Part shown: in pieces, positions 24,929 to 53,766 of the stretch
How the letters are laid out: the number at the start of each line of letters is the position of its first letter
Numbering within the stretch: position 1 is the stretch's first letter
Origin: Bacilli bacterium
GTDB lineage: Bacteria > Bacillota_I > Bacilli_A > RF39 > UBA660
Assembly (NCBI GenBank): GCA_017404385.1
Contig: JAFRCK010000023.1
Span: 124,001 to 188,000 of the forward strand
Length of the DNA: 64,000 bases
Direction of reading: 5' to 3'
Notes under the pieces: model-generated
Seen by the model: the letters and a program-made list of their open reading frames with translations, nothing else
Databases searched by the model: none
What the model was told of the DNA's origin: nothing
Made by a program: the position numbers and the translations under genes

Positions 24929-25414
24929 ATGGATAGATTTAGTAGAACCCTTCATGGCTATAATCCAGAAGAAGTAAATAAGTTTTTGGATGATGTTATA
25001 GTTCAAGTAGAAAGAATTATTGAATCAAATAAAGAAAAAGATAAAGAAATAGAAAAATTAAAAAAAGAAGTAAGTGATTTAATAAATACTAAAGCTACAA
25101 ATGAAACTATTACAAAAGCTAAGAAGTTTGATGAACTCCAAGGAGCACTTGTAGACGCTATTGATATGGCTAGAAATACTGGAGAACATATGAGAGCTGT
25201 TGCTAAAAAAGAACGTAATCTTATATTAGCTGAAGCTAAACAAAATGCTAATTTAATAATTAAAGAAGCTTTAGAAAAATCTAGTAGAATTGAATATCAA
25301 GCAAACTTGCTTAGAAGAAACATAATTTCATTTAAAAGAAGATTAAAAATTAATTTAGAAGAACAAATGAAATTAGTTGACGAAATTGAAATTATTGATT
25401 TAGAAAATAAATGA
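24929..25414 (+). CDS. divIVA: DivIVA-family cell-pole/septum protein
   Basis: Coiled-coil protein that marks curved membrane at poles and septa. 161 residues. The N-terminal lipid-binding domain is clear (FSRTLHGYNPEEVNKFLDDV), then two coiled coils. The usual membrane-binding Phe near the N-terminus is FSR (residues 4-6). Its position upstream of ileS is the conserved Bacillus arrangement. The Ile T-box starts right after it, and no clear separate promoter was seen, so the T-box may act within a divIVA read-through transcript. Confidence 0.93.
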   Translation: MDRFSRTLHGYNPEEVNKFLDDVIVQVERIIESNKEKDKEIEKLKKEVSDLINTKATNETITKAKKFDELQGALVDAIDMARNTGEHMRAVAKKERNLILAEAKQNANLIIKEALEKSSRIEYQANLLRRNIISFKRRLKINLEEQMKLVDEIEIIDLENK

Positions 25415-25429
25415 TAGAGACGTGTATTT

Positions 25430-25617
25430 ATGATATTTTAAGAGAGTTAACGGTTGGTGAGAGTTAATAATTATTAAATACAAGATCACTCTAGATATCC
25501 CCATTTGAATAGTTAGATTGGGGCGTAAAAATGCGTTAATATTTAAGAGCATAGAAATATCTATGAAGTAAGGTGGTACCGCTAGAAATAGTCCTTACAT
25601 CATAGATATTTTTTATT
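25430..25617 (+). promoter_or_regulatory. T-box riboswitch (isoleucine)
   Basis: Stem I elements agagagttaacggttggtgag (about 25441-25461) and specifier ATC (25485-25487, followed by A) mark an Ile leader. The T-box AAGGTGGTACCGC starts at 25570, and its TGGT tetrad fits an A discriminator. The terminator arm CCTTACATCATAGAT (25593-25607) pairs with ATCTATGAAGTAAGG just upstream. Bases 25543-25607 are identical to the Val T-box at 53692-53756. Confidence 0.9.
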
Positions 25618-31170: not shown

Positions 31171-32334
31171 ATGAAAGATAATGATAAGAAGAAAATTGAT
31201 GTCAAGAATATTAATGAAATGACTTCTATTGGCACTAAGATATTAAAAATACTTTATTTTTTAATTATAATTCTTGCTATATATGCAGTAACTTTAATTA
31301 ATAAAGAATGGGGAATTTTTAAATTTATATTAACTATATTATCTGTTATTTCACCATTATTTATCGGAATTATAATTGCTTATTTACTTAATCCTTTAAT
31401 CAATAGAATGACTAGAAATAAAAAGATGAATCGAACGGTTGCGACAAGTATAGTATTCATAATCTTACTTATAGTTATTTATTTATCTTGTTCTTATTTA
31501 TTTCCGGTTATTGGAAAAGAAGTAAGGGATCTTATAAAATATATTCCTAATGTAATAGATTCAGTTAATGATTTTATAAATGGTATATTACATAGATTAA
31601 ATATTAGTGGAATGAGCGCAGAATTAACAGAAAGTATTAAAAACACAATTACAAGTGGTTTAACTAGTTTTACAACAGATATTCCAAATCATATGTTTGG
31701 AGCAATTAGTAGTGTTATAAAGGATGTCATATTAATATTATTTGGATTTGTTATTAGTTTTTATTTATTAATTGATTTTGACAGAGCGCAAGATTATATA
31801 TATGTATTCGTACCAAAAAAATATAGAAAAGATGTTCATTATTTGTTAAGTACAATTAGTGAACAAATATTTAGTTTTGTAAAAGGAACTGGGTTTGTAG
31901 CTTTATTAGTATTTATAGTATCAGCGGTTTGTTTTGGATGCGCAGGTTTAAGAGCGGCTATTTTCTTTGCTTTATGGAATGCCATAACTAATATTATTCC
32001 ATATATAGGACCATATATAGGAGGTATTCCAATAGTCGCAGTAGCTTTCGCAACAGATTATAAATTAGGAATCATAATATTAATAATAGTATTAGCTATT
32101 CAATTAATAGAAAGTTATATATTAAGTCCAATAGTCATGAGTAAGACTATGAAATTACATCCTGTAACAATTATTATTAGTTTATTAATATTTGATTATT
32201 TCTTTGGAATAATAGGTATGTTAATCGCAACACCTTTAACAGCTATAATTAAAACTATAATTTTGTTTATTGATGAAAAATTAAATATAAGAGATAGATT
32301 ACGTAAAAGAAATTCTTTTGGAGATGATTTGTAA
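31171..32334 (+). CDS. AI-2E family transporter (YtvI/TqsA-like)
   Basis: 387 residues with about 8 TM segments: pairs near the N-terminus (about 28-82), a long periplasm-facing loop with amphipathic helices (DLIKYIPNVIDSVNDFING), then C-terminal helices with NIIPYIGPYIGGIP (about 285-298) and LSPIVMSKTMKLHP. These motifs define the AI-2E family. Members export small molecules or act as Na+/H+ antiporters; the substrate here is unknown. Confidence 0.85.
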   Translation: MKDNDKKKIDVKNINEMTSIGTKILKILYFLIIILAIYAVTLINKEWGIFKFILTILSVISPLFIGIIIAYLLNPLINRMTRNKKMNRTVATSIVFIILLIVIYLSCSYLFPVIGKEVRDLIKYIPNVIDSVNDFINGILHRLNISGMSAELTESIKNTITSGLTSFTTDIPNHMFGAISSVIKDVILILFGFVISFYLLIDFDRAQDYIYVFVPKKYRKDVHYLLSTISEQIFSFVKGTGFVALLVFIVSAVCFGCAGLRAAIFFALWNAITNIIPYIGPYIGGIPIVAVAFATDYKLGIIILIIVLAIQLIESYILSPIVMSKTMKLHPVTIIISLLIFDYFFGIIGMLIATPLTAIIKTIILFIDEKLNIRDRLRKRNSFGDDL

Positions 32335-32348: not shown

Positions 32349-32392
32349 TTTATGGTATAATTTAAATAGGCATATGAAAGGGGAAATGAAGT

Positions 32393-32647
32393 ATCAAAAA
32401 ACTAGTTGTTAAAGAAATAAATGGTTATGATTATATATTAACGGATAATAATAAAGATTATGTTAAGAATATTGAGTTTATAGATATAAAAGTAAATATA
32501 GGTGATGTTATATATGCACCAGATTATCTTATTAAAGAAAATAATTTATATACATATGGCCCATTATTAAAAGATACATCTATTGAAGACGCAATTAAGG
32601 TTATACAAAACGGGGAAGAAATATTTTTAACTAGATATTATGGTTAA
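32393..32647 (+). CDS. Small uncharacterised protein with apparent ATC start
   Basis: An open frame of 85 codons fills the gap before the first LRR gene but has no ATG, GTG or TTG start. The frame opens after a TGA at 32387, and ATC 32393 lies 9 bases after AAGGGG (32378-32383). The protein (84 residues, beginning KKLVVKEINGYDYILTDN after the start) has alternating beta strands and ends FLTRYYG. Its TAA forms part of the RBS of the next gene, suggesting translational coupling. A damaged start codon is the alternative. Family not recognised. Confidence 0.55.
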   Translation: MKKLVVKEINGYDYILTDNNKDYVKNIEFIDIKVNIGDVIYAPDYLIKENNLYTYGPLLKDTSIEDAIKVIQNGEEIFLTRYYG

Positions 32648-32658
32648 GGAGTACTAAT

Positions 32659-34644
32659 ATGGAAATAGATGATTTAAAAGAAATTAAAAAGCATTATGGC
32701 GAAAATATGATGCATCTATGTAGAGAATTGTTTTCTACTATATTAGAAGAAAAAGGAAGATTATTTCAACTAATTAGTCAGCATTTTGAATATATTAGAA
32801 CATTATACGATGATATAGTTAATCATCATCTTCAGGAAGAATTTAAAGATTATATATATAGTTTTATTGATGTAGAACAAGATTCTATTGCTACTTCTAA
32901 AACACCAGCTGAGTTACTTGATATGGCAAATTATGATCTATTTGAATGTCATTCTGAAAGTGAAATACAATCTTTTAGGAAATATTATGAACCACATGAA
33001 GAATTATGTACATTTACTTTTGGTGGTAGATTACATAGATGCTTTGTATTTTTTGCTGTAAAAAAAGATGTTGATAATATTATTAGATCGGATTTTACTA
33101 AACCAGATAGACAGGATAGATATGGTACCTCCGTTATTAGCATTCAATTTACAAGAGGAAATAATAATACTGTTTCTATAAAAAATAGATATAATCATTC
33201 TGTAAATAATCCAGATGCTACTTTTGGTAATAACTTGGATAATATAATCCCAGGTTTAACATATGCTTTTAATAAAACATATAATCTTAATATTACTCCT
33301 ATTACTAGATATTTTGATTTACATAATTATGTTCTAACTAATGAAGGTAAATACATTAAATATAATAGTGAAGTAAATGGTGTTTATTATTGTAGAGATA
33401 ATATAATATATCTTAATGGTCAAGTTAAAAGATATGATAAACAAAAATATATTGTCATGGATTATTTTATTTTAGATAAAGTAAATAAAGAAATTACATT
33501 ATTAGATAGTTCAATTTCTGATTCTTTTATAAAATCTATTGGTAGAATTGAAAGAATAGAAGAATTTGTTGATAAAAGTACGAAAGATAGAAAAGTATTA
33601 ATTAATAGTAATATTGAAATATTATTAGATAGGGATAATAGAATAATAAGCTATGTTAATAAAAATGTAGAAGAAATCGGTAATAATTTTATGTATTATA
33701 ACCGTTGGATGCAAAATATTGATATTCCAAATGCAACTAGAGTAGGTAAAGGATTTTTAAGAAAAAATAATTTTTTAAAGACATATGATTTTTCAAATAT
33801 AAAAACAGTAGGAGATGATTTCCTACTTCATAATAAGGGAATAGAGGATTTATCTATGCCTAATTTAATTAGTACAGGGAAACAATTTTTAGGCTATATA
33901 TTTCATTTAAATAGTATTAATATGCCTAAATTACAAATTGCTGGTGATGATTTCCTATTTAGTGTTACTAACATTGGAGAAAAGATAGAATTTCCAAATC
34001 TTGAGGAAATAGGAGACTCATTTTTAGATAAAAATACAAGTCTTGTTAGTTTTTCTGCTCCAAAGTTAAGACATGTTGGTGATAATTTTATTTCATTAAA
34101 TAAAAAAATACATTTTCTTGATCTACCAGAACTTGAAGAATTAGGCCATAACTTTTTATCTAATAATGAATCAATTTTAGAATTATCTTTACCAAAATTA
34201 AGAACAGTTGGAAGAAATTTTTTACATAAAAATAAAATAATTAAAAGAGTATCTTTACCTAGTGTTATAGAAATAAAATCTAATTTCTTGCATGATGCTG
34301 AAGAATTAATTTCTGTAGATTTACCAAATGTTGATTTTATCGATAATAATTTTTTAGTGTATTGTAGATCGTTAGGAGAAATTATTTTACCTAATGTTAA
34401 TATAATTGGGAATTGTTTTTTACATAATTGTGTAAATATAGAGAAAGTTATTATGCCTAATGTAGGATCAGTAGGACATGGTTTTTTAACTGAGGCAAAT
34501 AATATTACAGAATTATATATACCTAATATTATTGTTATAGATGATGAAGCCTTTTTATCTAGTTCTCCTGAAGAATTAAGAAATAAATACAAAGATAAAT
34601 TTATTAGTTTAGAAACATCATCAAGTAATAAAAGAAAGAGATAA
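32659..34644 (+). CDS. Cytoplasmic leucine-rich repeat protein, paralogue 1
   Basis: 661 residues without signal peptide or TM segment. An N-terminal domain (about 1-330) begins LKEIKKHYGENMMHLCREL and includes YGTSVISIQF and NRYNHSVNNPDATFGNNLD; I know of it only as a conserved region of uncharacterised gut Firmicutes proteins. From about 335 to the end are some 13 repeats of about 23 residues, with pattern LPxLxxIGxxFLxxNxxLxxL, a variant of the BspA-type LRR. The C-terminus is basic (SSNKRKR). It is followed by a close paralogue. A role in protein binding is likely; the partner is unknown. Confidence 0.8.
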   Translation: MEIDDLKEIKKHYGENMMHLCRELFSTILEEKGRLFQLISQHFEYIRTLYDDIVNHHLQEEFKDYIYSFIDVEQDSIATSKTPAELLDMANYDLFECHSESEIQSFRKYYEPHEELCTFTFGGRLHRCFVFFAVKKDVDNIIRSDFTKPDRQDRYGTSVISIQFTRGNNNTVSIKNRYNHSVNNPDATFGNNLDNIIPGLTYAFNKTYNLNITPITRYFDLHNYVLTNEGKYIKYNSEVNGVYYCRDNIIYLNGQVKRYDKQKYIVMDYFILDKVNKEITLLDSSISDSFIKSIGRIERIEEFVDKSTKDRKVLINSNIEILLDRDNRIISYVNKNVEEIGNNFMYYNRWMQNIDIPNATRVGKGFLRKNNFLKTYDFSNIKTVGDDFLLHNKGIEDLSMPNLISTGKQFLGYIFHLNSINMPKLQIAGDDFLFSVTNIGEKIEFPNLEEIGDSFLDKNTSLVSFSAPKLRHVGDNFISLNKKIHFLDLPELEELGHNFLSNNESILELSLPKLRTVGRNFLHKNKIIKRVSLPSVIEIKSNFLHDAEELISVDLPNVDFIDNNFLVYCRSLGEIILPNVNIIGNCFLHNCVNIEKVIMPNVGSVGHGFLTEANNITELYIPNIIVIDDEAFLSSSPEELRNKYKDKFISLETSSSNKRKR

Positions 34645-34667
34645 TAAAAATCTTTTTCTTTTTTTTT
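34631..34667 (+). terminator. Terminator between the LRR paralogues
   Basis: AAAGAAAGAGAT pairs with ATCTTTTTCTTT (one G-T pair), then T residues; it overlaps the stop codon. Confidence 0.65.
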
Positions 34668-34705
34668 AAATTGTTATATAATATTTGAATTAGTCGGGTG
34701 GTAGT

Positions 34706-36658
34706 ATGTTAAATCAGGATTTAAAAGATATTAAAAAGTATTATGGTGAAAACATGATGCATTTATGTAGAGAGTTATTTCCTAGTTTATTAGAACAAGA
34801 AGGATTACTATTTAGAATAATTTCCGATCATTTTGATTATAGTAAACTTTTATATGATGATATAATTGCTGAAAATATGGAAGAAGAATTTAAGGACTAT
34901 ATATATAGTTTTATTGATGTAGAAAAAGATAGAATAGTAACCAATAAAACTCCTAAAGAACTATTAGATGAAGCTGGCTATGATTTATATGAATGTCATT
35001 CAGAACATGATATACAAAGTTTTAGAAAGTATTATGATGAAGATGAAGTATTATGTACTATAAAATATGGTGGTAGATTAAATAGATGTTTTGTATTCTT
35101 TGCTGTAAAAAAAGATGCTGAAAATATAAAAAGAACTGATTTTAAGAAACCAAAAAGGCAAGATGAATATGGAACATCAGTAATTAGTATTCAATTTAGA
35201 AAAGGTCAAATAAATACTGTTTCCATAAAGAATAGATATAATCATACAGTGAATAATCCAGATGCGACTTTTGGTAATAATTTAGATAGTATTATTTTAG
35301 GATTAACAGATGCTTTTGAAAGAGAATATGGTTTTAATATCAATTCTAGCTATTCTGATTTTGAACTAAATAGTTATTATTTAGGTAGTGATGGTAAATT
35401 TTATAAGATAAATTATGAAGTAGATGATATTTGTTTTGGTTCAAATAATGTTCTTTTAGAAAATGGCAGACCTAATAAACTGGATAAAGCAAGATATGTT
35501 ATAATGGACTATTTTGTTTTAGATAAAGTTGAAAAAACAATTAAGATTTGTAATGAAGATTTAAGGGATACATTCGCCGATACAATTGGACATATAGATA
35601 AAATAGAAGAATTTGTTGATAAAAAGACAAAAGAAAGAACAATTGTTATTAATGATAAAATTAAGATTGTAGTTGATAAAATAGGAGTAATTATCAAGTA
35701 TATAAATGAAGATATTACGGAAATAGATGATAATTTTCTATCTTATAATCCATGTCTTCAAGAAATTGAAATACCTAATGTTACTAAAATAGGAAATAAT
35801 TTTCTAAGAAATAATAGAATAATGTTATCTTTTAAATCTGAAAAATTAACTGAAGTAGGTGAAGATTTTCTATATATGAACACTAAAATGAGTCTTCTAA
35901 AATTACCTAATTTACTACGTGTTAGTGATAATTTTATGTATGAATCACAAATAGATCATATTAGTTTTCCTAAATTAAAGTATATTGGCGATCATTTTAT
36001 GTGTGAAAATCAATTATTATCTAGTATATTATTTTTACCTGAAGTAGAAATTATTGGGAAAGATTTCTTATATAAGAATATCAAAGTTAATCAAGTAATA
36101 ATGCCTTTAGTAGAAAAAGTAGGATTGGATTTTATTTCTTCTAATTCTATTATTGAAAGTGTTTTTATGCCTAAATTAAAAAAAGCAGGTTCCTTTTTCT
36201 TATCTGGAAATAAATGTTTAACATATTTAGAATTAGATTCACTAGAGGAAGCAGGTGATATGTTTTTAAGAGATAATAAATTAATAGATACTATTATTTT
36301 ACCGAAAGTAAAGAAAATTTGTGGTGATTTTTGTTATCGAGCTTTTGGTCCAATTAATATAGAATTACCTGAAGTTGAAGAGATAGGACCTAGCTTTTTA
36401 TCTAACTGTGAAGAAATGGAAAGAATAGAATTACCTAAAGTAAAAACTATAATGAGATGGTTTTTACCTAGATGTAAAGAAATTCATGAAGTTATTTTAC
36501 CAGAAGCAATAGATGTTTGCGGTGAAGGTTTCTTAAGAGATTCTGATAAGAAAAAGATAGAAAGATTTTATGCACCAAAATATTTAGAAAAAATATCAGA
36601 TGAACATAAACCTAAATTTTTAAAAGAATTAAAATTAAAAAACAAACATATTACTTAA
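34706..36658 (+). CDS. Cytoplasmic leucine-rich repeat protein, paralogue 2
   Basis: 650 residues. The N-terminal 330 residues are closely similar to the preceding gene product (KKYYGENMMHLCREL, KDYIYSFIDVEKD, RYNHTVNNPDATFGNNLD). The repeat region has the same roughly 23-residue LRR unit (LPKVKTIMRWFLPRCKEI) but has diverged more, and the C-terminus ends LKLKNKHIT. A tandem duplication with a terminator between copies implies separate expression. RBS gggtggt is modest. Confidence 0.8.
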   Translation: MLNQDLKDIKKYYGENMMHLCRELFPSLLEQEGLLFRIISDHFDYSKLLYDDIIAENMEEEFKDYIYSFIDVEKDRIVTNKTPKELLDEAGYDLYECHSEHDIQSFRKYYDEDEVLCTIKYGGRLNRCFVFFAVKKDAENIKRTDFKKPKRQDEYGTSVISIQFRKGQINTVSIKNRYNHTVNNPDATFGNNLDSIILGLTDAFEREYGFNINSSYSDFELNSYYLGSDGKFYKINYEVDDICFGSNNVLLENGRPNKLDKARYVIMDYFVLDKVEKTIKICNEDLRDTFADTIGHIDKIEEFVDKKTKERTIVINDKIKIVVDKIGVIIKYINEDITEIDDNFLSYNPCLQEIEIPNVTKIGNNFLRNNRIMLSFKSEKLTEVGEDFLYMNTKMSLLKLPNLLRVSDNFMYESQIDHISFPKLKYIGDHFMCENQLLSSILFLPEVEIIGKDFLYKNIKVNQVIMPLVEKVGLDFISSNSIIESVFMPKLKKAGSFFLSGNKCLTYLELDSLEEAGDMFLRDNKLIDTIILPKVKKICGDFCYRAFGPINIELPEVEEIGPSFLSNCEEMERIELPKVKTIMRWFLPRCKEIHEVILPEAIDVCGEGFLRDSDKKKIERFYAPKYLEKISDEHKPKFLKELKLKNKHIT

Positions 36659-36701: not shown

Positions 36702-36900
36702 AATTCATTTGATGAACGAGTAATTAATTATTTATTTAAAGAGAATTAGTGGTTGGTGAGAACTAATAATAGATTTTAATGAACGCTATCATCAATAAGA
36801 AGCATGAAAACATGCCGGTTTAAGCCGTTATTTAAATTAAGTTAAATAAAGGATGGTACCGCCCAAAAGGCTCCTTAAAAGGATGTACCATCTTTTTTTT
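36702..36900 (+). promoter_or_regulatory. T-box riboswitch (alanine)
   Basis: Stem I contains gagaattagtggttggtgag (about 36741-36760), and specifier GCT lies at 36785-36787 followed by A. The T-box AAGGATGGTACCGCC starts at 36849. The terminator combines TCCTT/AAGGA with GATGGTAC (36852-36859) pairing GTACCATC (36885-36892), then eight T. The terminator therefore masks the tRNA-binding TGGT directly. It controls cmk and alaS. Confidence 0.92.
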
Positions 36901-36910
36901 GGGAGGATTT

Positions 36911-37558
36911 ATGAAAATAATTGCAATTGATGGACCAAGTGGTTCAGGGAAAGGAACTATAGCTAAAGAAGTAGCTAAAAGATTAAATTATACTTATATA
37001 GATACAGGTGCAATGTATAGATGTGTATCACTTATGAGCTTAAGAGAAAACCTAAAAGAAACTGATGAAAAAGAAATCGTTGATTTACTTAAAAAAGCAG
37101 ATATTAGATTAACTAATGAAGGTAAAGTATTTCTTAATAGTGAAGATGTTTCTGATAAAATAAGAACTATGGAAGTAACTCATAGAGTATCTAAGATTAG
37201 TTCTATAATAGCATTAAGAGAAGTAATGAGAGAAAAACAAAGAGAATTCGCTACTAAAAATAGTATCGTAATGGAAGGAAGAGATATAACAACTGAAGTA
37301 TTTCCTGATGCAGATTATAAATTTTATTTAGATGCTTCTGTAGAAGAAAGAGCAAGAAGAAGACAATTACAAAATGAAGAAAAAGGTATTGAAAGTACAT
37401 ATGAAGAGGTAAAAGCAGCTATTGAAGAAAGAGATTATGATGATATGCATAGACCTGTTGGAGCTTTAACTAGAACTGATGATCAAATATATATTGATTC
37501 AAGCAATATGGAAATTGAAGAAGTAATAAACTTTATATTAGAAAAAGTAGGTGAATAA
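36911..37558 (+). CDS. cmk: Cytidylate kinase
   Basis: Phosphorylates CMP/dCMP. 215 residues from ATG 36911 (RBS gggagg). P-loop DGPSGSGKGT (residues 6-15), YIDTGAMYRCVSL, EGRDITTEVFPDA and RARRRQLQ are standard. It lies between the Ala T-box and alaS, with alaS starting one base after its stop, so Cmk is expected to rise during Ala-tRNA limitation. Confidence 0.96.
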   Translation: MKIIAIDGPSGSGKGTIAKEVAKRLNYTYIDTGAMYRCVSLMSLRENLKETDEKEIVDLLKKADIRLTNEGKVFLNSEDVSDKIRTMEVTHRVSKISSIIALREVMREKQREFATKNSIVMEGRDITTEVFPDADYKFYLDASVEERARRRQLQNEEKGIESTYEEVKAAIEERDYDDMHRPVGALTRTDDQIYIDSSNMEIEEVINFILEKVGE

Positions 37559-53543: not shown

Positions 53544-53549
53544 CTTTTC

Positions 53550-53766
53550 ATAAACGTTGAAAAAGAGGAGTAAAATATTATTAATTTTAAGAGAGTTAGT
53601 GTTTGGTGTAAACTAATAATTAATATATTTGAAGGTAGCTTTTGAGTTTAATATCTAAGTTAATAGGATGTTACGTTATACGCGTTAAGTATTAAGAGCA
53701 TAGAAATATCTATGAAGTAAGGTGGTACCGCTAGAAATAGTCCTTACATCATAGATTTTTTTTATT
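53550..53766 (+). promoter_or_regulatory. T-box riboswitch (valine)
   Basis: Stem I has gagagttagtgtttggtgta (53591-53610) and specifier GTA (53635-53637, followed by G). The T-box AAGGTGGTACCGC starts near 53719, and its TGGT tetrad fits an A discriminator. The 65 bases 53692-53756, including Stem III, T-box and terminator arm, are identical to the Ile leader. It controls the HD-domain gene and valS. Confidence 0.92.

What the first reader, a model, noticed from the sequence alone, without database searches (positions are those of the whole stretch)
32659..36658. Tandem cytoplasmic LRR proteins with a shared unknown N-terminal domain
Two adjacent paralogues combine a ~330-residue domain (signature YGENMMHLCREL, NPDATFGNN) with BspA-like repeats of a distinct type (IGxxFLxxN). 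They lack export signals, unlike most BspA-type LRR proteins, which are surface adhesins. Duplication with divergence of the repeats suggests different binding partners.
Basis: partly seen in the sequence, partly recalled or inferred. Interest (0 to 1): 0.5.

Follow-up and report, generated by a model that had tools for sequence, protein, structure and literature searches.

The report
Diversifying repeat proteins shared with phages
Two neighbouring genes of a gut bacterium, plus a small third gene that had been overlooked, look like an optional, fast-diversifying recognition module whose front half also occurs in giant phage proteins; what it does is not yet known.

Summary
In detail: two adjacent 661- and 650-aa ORFs share an N-terminal region (60% identity) without a Pfam or NCBIfam match, followed by BspA-type LRRs. 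Four things extend it. (1) A missed third gene: an 85-residue frame at 32390-32647 belongs to a small-protein family that sits beside these genes. In 291 genomes, 24 of 28 strong partner hits lie next to an N-domain core; 3 of the other 4 are at contig ends beside LRR or LRR-like remnants. (2) The locus is optional: the same site is empty in 8 of 10 informative genomes of the genus. (3) Elsewhere the genes form head-to-tail arrays of at least 13, with a conserved N-domain and diversified LRRs. (4) The N-domain with the same 22-residue LRR type sits inside 3,561-4,031-aa phage ORFs. Best reading: an intracellular conflict module, an enzyme-like core aimed by a variable LRR arm and governed by a small partner. 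Toxicity, catalysis and binding are inferred, not shown. The fold search was inconclusive (Z at most 4.2).

The parts
32390..32647 (+). Small partner gene (85 residues from stop to stop; C-terminus R-Y-Y-G). No ORF with an ATG/GTG/TTG start (25 aa or more) is listed in this frame; the codon at 32393 aligns with the start region of relatives and lies 9 nt after an AAAGGGG ribosome-binding-like stretch. Whether it is translated is not shown.
   Evidence: ORF list; DNA; partner HMM E=3e-20; alignment A5; only hit in its genome
32659..34644 (+). ORF1, 661 aa: N-domain + LRR
32659..32868 (+). ORF1 residues 1-70, helical N-terminal part
   Evidence: AlphaFold2 model
32884..33300 (+). ORF1 residues 76-214, conserved alpha/beta core (C117, R124, R151, D153, Y155, S158, Q163, S173, K175, R177, Y178, N179, D186, T188 invariant in 97 sequences; H180 at least 90%)
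33316..33678 (+). ORF1 residues 220-340, strand-rich region
33661..34575 (+). ORF1 LRR region (10 LRR-like units by pattern; boundaries approximate)
34706..36658 (+). ORF2, 650 aa: N-domain + LRR
34931..35347 (+). ORF2 conserved core
35702..36520 (+). ORF2 LRR region (9 LRR-like units by pattern; boundaries approximate)
31171..32334 (+). Left flank: AI-2E-type transporter gene (name recalled from the sequence); in 8 of 10 informative genomes of the genus it lies 67-209 nt from cmk
36899..37558 (+). Right flank: cmk-like gene (name recalled), preceded by a T-box leader

Best explanation
The locus is an accessory, intracellular conflict module of three genes: one small partner and two LRR proteins. 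Each LRR protein has an enzyme-like N-terminal core, shared with giant phage proteins, that acts in the cytoplasm. Its LRR arm chooses the target and diversifies between copies. The small partner, encoded next to and often overlapping an LRR gene, most likely binds and restrains or matures the LRR protein, as an antitoxin, immunity protein or chaperone would. Shown: gene structure, partner linkage, empty sites, LRR diversification, homology with phage proteins. Inferred: cytoplasmic location, enzymatic activity, target recognition, the partner's role, and whether the module defends against phages or attacks competitors.
For: Partner linkage: of 28 partner hits with E below 1e-10 in 291 genomes (3 weaker hits left out), 24 lie on the same contig and strand within 2.5 kb of an N-domain core; of the other 4, 2 are at contig ends beside a cut LRR gene, 1 at a contig end beside an LRR-like remnant (by eye) and 1 is an orphan. 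21 of 23 partner genomes also match the core against 28 of the other 268 (Fisher p=1.6e-16, not corrected for kinship, assuming searches drew the same 291). In 72 loci gathered by the N-domain, 45 of 45 partner genes are adjacent on the same strand and 35 of 45 overlap or lie within 4 nt (biased by how the loci were found). Accessory: 49 of 291 genomes; site empty in 8 of 10 informative genomes of the genus, this one included. Enzyme-like conservation: 20 invariant residues over 97 sequences including 8 viral ones. Diversification: N more similar than LRR in 59 of 61 neighbouring pairs (57 of 58 once three pairs seen twice are removed; means 74% against 49% over the 61). Phage link: 12 viral loci; in 9 of them (about six distinct, three near-identical pairs) the N-domain is embedded in ORFs of 3,561-3,759 aa, and a further contig has a 4,031-aa ORF.
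Against: No toxicity, catalysis or binding evidence. 31 of 72 loci lack the partner, and in 16 of these no contig end interferes, so the partner is not always needed. No partner was found in the 12 viral loci. The partner frame in the window lacks an ordinary start codon. By recalled names, many of the 40 neighbour clusters listed are housekeeping genes, not defence or toxin genes. No PADLOC match. The fold search found no significant relative.
Confidence: 0.5

Rival explanations
1. Anti-phage or anti-plasmid defence: the LRR arms are sensors of phage proteins, the core is a suicidal or blocking effector, and arrays are sensor repertoires, as in NLR-like immunity.
For: Arrays of at least 13 copies with a conserved core and variable LRRs; patchy, accessory distribution; relatives in phages, which could be counter-measures or donors.
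Against: No NACHT/STAND or other known defence domain in the window proteins; the neighbour clusters listed do not look like defence genes (names recalled); a sensor need not carry a separate small partner.
Confidence: 0.25
2. Surface or secreted adhesins or effectors exported by an unrecognised route, aimed at the animal host or at other gut microbes; the LRRs bind host ligands as in classical BspA proteins.
For: BspA-type LRRs; several source MAGs are from animal guts by their titles, such as sheep ileum and deer rectum; LRR diversification.
Against: No hydrophobic segment at the N-terminus in 142 genes (best value 1.25; 1 of 142 exceeds 1.6 anywhere). The enzyme-like core and the phage relatives do not suit an adhesin.
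Confidence: 0.15
3. Domesticated leftovers of phage giant proteins with no present function, drifting towards decay.
For: Fragments or copies with stops exist in several relatives (G022, G024, G027, G039, G042); the partner frame in the window has no ordinary start.
Against: The N-domain is under purifying selection (window pair dN 0.30, dS 0.79; many pairs dN/dS near 0.2) and invariant residues persist.
Confidence: 0.1

Closest known systems
BspA-type LRR proteins (Pfam PF13306 LRR_5)
   Same: C-terminal repeats match LRR_5 above gathering score; nearest solved relatives of ORF1 are TpLRR 6mlx (E=3e-4) and 4gt6 (E=0.023), in the LRR part only.
   Different: 22-residue repeats P-x-L-x-x-[VI]-G-x-x-F-L-x-x-N-x-x-L-x-x-[LI]-x-L (part of this framework was set by the search pattern), no hydrophobic export signal, and an N-terminal domain not matched in Pfam.
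Phage polyvalent proteins (Iyer et al. 2017, PMC5512222; passages seen)
   Same: A homologous N-domain plus the same LRR type occurs inside 3,561-4,031-aa viral ORFs, several with HExxH motifs in the printed translations (L096, L097, L100, L102, L119).
   Different: The window genes are stand-alone ~650-aa proteins in a chromosome with a small partner. The terms 'LRR', 'leucine' and 'BspA' do not occur in the paper's main text; its LPD alignments were not available. In L095 I saw no HExxH in the corresponding stretch.
Viral and gut proteins with a C-x-T ... Y-G-x-S ... R-[YW]-N-H core fused to WG repeats or BspA-like LRRs (L184, L186, L188, L189)
   Same: Profile comparison links the cores (hhalign E=2.1e-5, probability 77%, about 90 columns), and core + repeats recurs (WG in L184; LRRs by eye in L186).
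   Different: Only 18-25% identity; the viral-only profile gives a weaker link (probability 43%). L188 and L189 show no such repeats by eye. The PHROGs that match the L186 protein (18805, 35892) have unknown function.
Toxin-antitoxin / effector-immunity gene pairs
   Same: Large protein and small, often overlapping, tightly linked partner.
   Different: No toxicity or neutralisation known. In several arrays one partner serves many large genes, and some loci have none.
NLR-type bacterial immune proteins (e.g. bNACHT25, PMC12169576; start of abstract in search listings only)
   Same: Idea of a variable recognition arm coupled to a fixed effector.
   Different: No NACHT/STAND NTPase domain in Pfam and no PADLOC hit.

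Membership tests
LRR_5 / BspA-type LRR | Repeat region scores above Pfam gathering cut-off | tested here: met
   60.7 and 63.3 bits against 27.7
BspA-type surface adhesin | N-terminal export signal | tested here: not met
   Hydropathy scan of 142 genes, window values 0.18 and 0.54; crude test, no dedicated predictor available
Phage polyvalent protein | Several effector domains in one very large polypeptide of an invasive element | tested here: not met
   Window proteins are 661 and 650 aa, chromosomal. The viral relatives do have the size (3,561-3,759 aa; 4,031 aa)
BECR/PBECR RNase | Match to PBECR or RelE-like Pfam models, helix-His and strand-4 Ser/Thr | tested here: inconclusive
   1 of 11 members matched YafQ_toxin at E=0.073, not significant; the fold lists did not show BECR, which does not exclude it
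GNAT acyltransferase | GNAT fold with acyl-CoA loop | tested here: inconclusive
   Most of the 50 VIA rows shown are GNATs, but best Z 4.2, rmsd 4.0, 93 aligned and best Foldseek E 0.18, below the reported noise level
Toxin-antitoxin or effector-immunity pair | Tightly linked small partner gene | tested here: met
   24 of 28 strong partner hits adjacent; 45 of 45 in gathered loci (biased by how the loci were found); but 31 of 72 loci have no partner
Toxin-antitoxin or effector-immunity pair | Toxicity of the large protein, neutralised by the small one | not testable with these tools
   needs expression
NLR/STAND defence protein | NACHT/STAND NTPase domain | tested here: not met
   No such Pfam match in the two window proteins, no PADLOC match

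The most novel reading that the evidence does not exclude
A previously undescribed prokaryotic recognition system: a new enzyme domain, exchanged between giant phage proteins and gut Bacilli, is duplicated into chromosomal repertoires of at least 13 LRR receptors. Their recognition arms diversify and recombine apart from the fixed effector, and a dedicated small partner keeps them in check.
Probability: 0.25. Interest if true: 0.8.

Novelty: new variant of a known kind. Interest (0 to 1): 0.55.

Why it matters
If the reading is right, uncultured gut Bacilli carry expandable arrays of intracellular LRR receptors with a fixed effector core that phages also build into giant proteins. It would give an enzyme-like domain (R-[YW]-N-H core), a cognate small partner and concrete residues to test, and would turn the 362 relatives found in genome contigs, whose kind of N-terminus has no family in the libraries searched, into one testable system.

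Tried and rejected
Family look-ups of the N-domain gave nothing significant: NCBIfam and PADLOC no match, Pfam best E 0.0065 in 1 of 11 members (Orthopox_F7), PHROGs best 0.0076 in 1 of 11. The small partner: Pfam best E 0.00072 in 1 of 36 members and S1_2 in 3 of 36 at best 0.0048, taken as chance; PDB profile best E 0.12; it was not run against NCBIfam or PHROGs. PDB sequence profiles of the N-domain: A1 no match, A6 best E 0.087, A7 best E 0.014, all judged chance. Foldseek and VIA on the whole N-part returned propeller-blade rows from its strand-rich end, so the core was predicted alone; that gave a weak list, GNAT-dominated in VIA (no row above Z 4.2). PARP rows, weaker in Foldseek, were dropped. 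Single-sequence scans of genome contigs and viral contigs found nothing; alignments found 362 relatives in genome contigs (80 kept, 73 loci), 12 and 13 viral loci (largely the same contigs) and 4 more distant ones. tblastn against INPHARED phages and PLSDB plasmids found no match. Prophage remnant or defence island around the window genes was considered and rejected for lack of such neighbours (names recalled). Seven literature searches (open-licence PubMed Central only; listings seen) showed no paper describing this domain or pair; that is not proof of absence. Dropped or double rows: L080 overlaps L038 and was left out of the counts, but not, where three pairs are seen twice; L045 and L048 overlap by about 1.3 kb and both were kept. 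Two of the 43 ORFs of the neighbour cluster are not partner-like from end to end but were chained in by a shared tail. The first 23-residue LRR-unit pattern had the wrong period and was replaced.
Full report
Observation. Their first 334 residues are 60% identical, and both C-terminal halves match the BspA-type LRR model LRR_5 above its gathering score. The N-domain matches no Pfam or NCBIfam family. The two copies are the only ones found in their 1.3-Mb assembly, 93.5% complete.

A third gene was missed. Clustering ORFs around relatives of the N-domain showed one neighbour family far above all others: 43 ORFs in 37 of the 73 loci, against 10 loci for the next (two of the 43 are chained in by a shared tail). 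It is a protein of about 85-95 residues ending in R-x-Y-G. A profile of it finds a frame in the window at 32390-32644, stop codon at 32645-32647, E=3e-20, 11 nt before ORF1. No ORF with an ATG, GTG or TTG start is listed in this frame (25 aa or more); the codon at 32393 aligns with the start region of relatives and follows an AAAGGGG stretch by 9 nt. Whether it is translated is open. The partner matches no Pfam family convincingly.

Linkage of the small partner. In 72 loci (73 less L080, which overlaps L038), 41 carry the partner. All 45 partner genes (E below 1e-8) are on the same strand as, and within 107 nt of, an N-domain gene; 35 of 45 overlap it or lie within 4 nt; 35 are downstream and 10 upstream of the nearest N gene. 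These loci were found through the N-domain, so that count is biased. The unbiased test is a search of 291 genomes with the partner profile: of 31 hits, 28 have E below 1e-10, and 24 of these lie within 2.5 kb of an N-domain core on the same contig and strand. Of the other four, G103:C33 and G154:C17 are at contig ends beside a cut LRR gene, G127:C37 is at a contig end beside an LRR-like remnant (by eye), and G215:C7 is an orphan between unrelated genes. Genomes: 21 have both, 28 core only, 2 strong partner only, 240 neither (this takes, with the same settings, to have drawn the same 291). Against the reading: 31 of 72 loci lack the partner, and in 16 of these no contig end explains it.

The locus is optional. 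Fifteen genomes were searched for the two flanking genes. Ten genomes of the genus, this one included, have both on one contig: the distance is 4.3-4.6 kb in two (this genome and G008) and 67-209 nt in eight (in G006 the left gene is only 45% identical). G008 carries the same kinds of genes at the same site in the order N, partner, N (locus L022, the same contig by length). In the family, 49 of 291 genomes match the core, some only by fragments. Outside the family: 13 of 98 relatives matched, none of the 39 from other families, and in a phylum-wide sample 4 of 295 genomes matched, all of this family. Record titles of the genome-contig hits say Bacilli, Tenericutes, Firmicutes, Bacillales, Erysipelotrichaceae, Clostridia or just bacterium, all MAGs (the best 80 of 362); I did not check those labels.

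Arrays and diversification. The contig behind L045 and L048 holds at least 13 head-to-tail copies, and the one behind L038 and L080 at least 10. 122 of 136 N-domain genes have at least two LRR-like units. In 59 of 61 neighbouring pairs the N-domains are more alike than the LRRs (means 74% and 49%); three pairs are counted twice there through L080, and without them it is 57 of 58. Synonymous and non-synonymous estimates show purifying selection on the N-domain (window pair dN 0.30, dS 0.79) and much freer LRRs (dN 0.69, dS 0.94; in L041, L067 and L076 LRR dN nearly equals dS). In L040 the LRR synonymous distance is 0.95 against 0.13 in the N-domain, and in L038 the first pair shows the reverse (0.15 against 0.40), so the two halves seem to have exchanged separately. 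Repeat alignments are uncertain and many distances are large, so these numbers are rough. The repeat is 22 residues long (772 units). The search pattern itself fixed or narrowed positions 1, 3, 6, 10, 11 and 22; not imposed were G at 7 (78%), N at 14 (85%) and L or I at 17 (93%). Positions 9, 12, 13, 15 and 16 vary most.

Phage relatives. A scan of IMG/VR with the 11-sequence alignment gave 12 loci. In nine (L095-L103; about six distinct, since L096/L098, L099/L100 and L101/L102 have ORFs of the same length) the N-domain lies inside ORFs of 3,561-3,759 aa. LRRs of the same 22-residue type follow it in the translations I could see and give 75 units in the five counted. HExxH motifs can be read in L096, L097, L100 and L102, not in the corresponding stretch of L095; Pfam reports only LRR_5 in the two ORFs scanned. 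A further contig, L119, came from a later scan and has a 4,031-aa ORF of the same kind. Three others (L104-L106) have the core with a different C-terminal part. None of the 12 has the small partner in the stretch fetched. Iyer et al. 2017 (PMC5512222, passages seen) describe such giant multidomain proteins of phages and conjugative elements as conflict weaponry; 'LRR' and 'BspA' do not occur in its main text.

The core. Over 97 sequences, eight of them viral, 20 positions are invariant, among them C117, R124, R151, D153, Y155, S158, Q163, S173, K175, R177, Y178, N179, D186 and T188; H180 is at least 90%. AlphaFold2 models are confident (N-part pLDDT 91, pTM 0.67; core alone pLDDT 95, pTM 0.90). 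No solved fold matches well: best Foldseek E 0.18, VIA Z at most 4.2, most of the 50 VIA rows GNAT acyltransferases. The predicted order of elements is compatible with the first half of a GNAT (my reading), but this is below the noise level and remains a lead. A weak match in genome G189 (E=2.2e-4) led to a wider superfamily. Two tandem proteins there have a core with C-x-T, Y-G-x-S and R-Y-N-H followed by WG repeats, and viral contig L186 has such a core followed by BspA-like LRRs (by eye). Profile comparison supports common descent (E=2.1e-5, probability 77%; 3.5e-5 and 72% with five sequences), though the viral-only profile is weaker (probability 43%).

Mechanism. Shown: gene structure, partner linkage, optional locus, diversification, phage homology. 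Inferred: the core acts as an enzyme in the cytoplasm, the LRR picks the target, the partner restrains or matures the LRR protein. I favour a conflict module (0.5) without deciding between attack and defence; phage defence as such I put at 0.25, surface adhesion at 0.15, relic at 0.1.

Novelty. The repeats are of a known kind. The N-domain family, its tie to the small partner and its presence in giant phage ORFs were not found described in seven searches of the open-licence library.

Noticed in passing
window 36704-36878 (+): T-box leader upstream of the cmk-alaS genes; below Rfam's gathering score (78.2 against 93 bits, E=1.8e-17), so missing from the gathering list, which shows two others at 25402-25599 and 53548-53748.
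   Followed up: yes
L184 (G189:C1:27000-34000): Tandem proteins with a related C-x-T / Y-G-x-S / R-Y-N-H core followed by WG repeats, beside DNA-methyltransferase-like genes (names recalled).
   Followed up: partly
L104, L105, L106: Viral contigs with the core fused to a different, uncharacterised C-terminal part, without LRRs; L104 and L105 also carry a ParB-like gene about 2.5-3 kb upstream.
   Followed up: no
L181 (G215:C7:5487-5768): An orphan partner gene between a prepilin-like gene and an ABC transporter (names recalled), with no N-domain gene nearby.
   Followed up: partly
L045:304-1398: An N-domain gene with no LRR (365 aa) at the upstream end of what was fetched of a 13-copy array.
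   Followed up: no
L005, L010-L013, L017-L019, L021: Fragmentary N-domain copies or copies with stops in relatives, suggesting ongoing loss.
   Followed up: no
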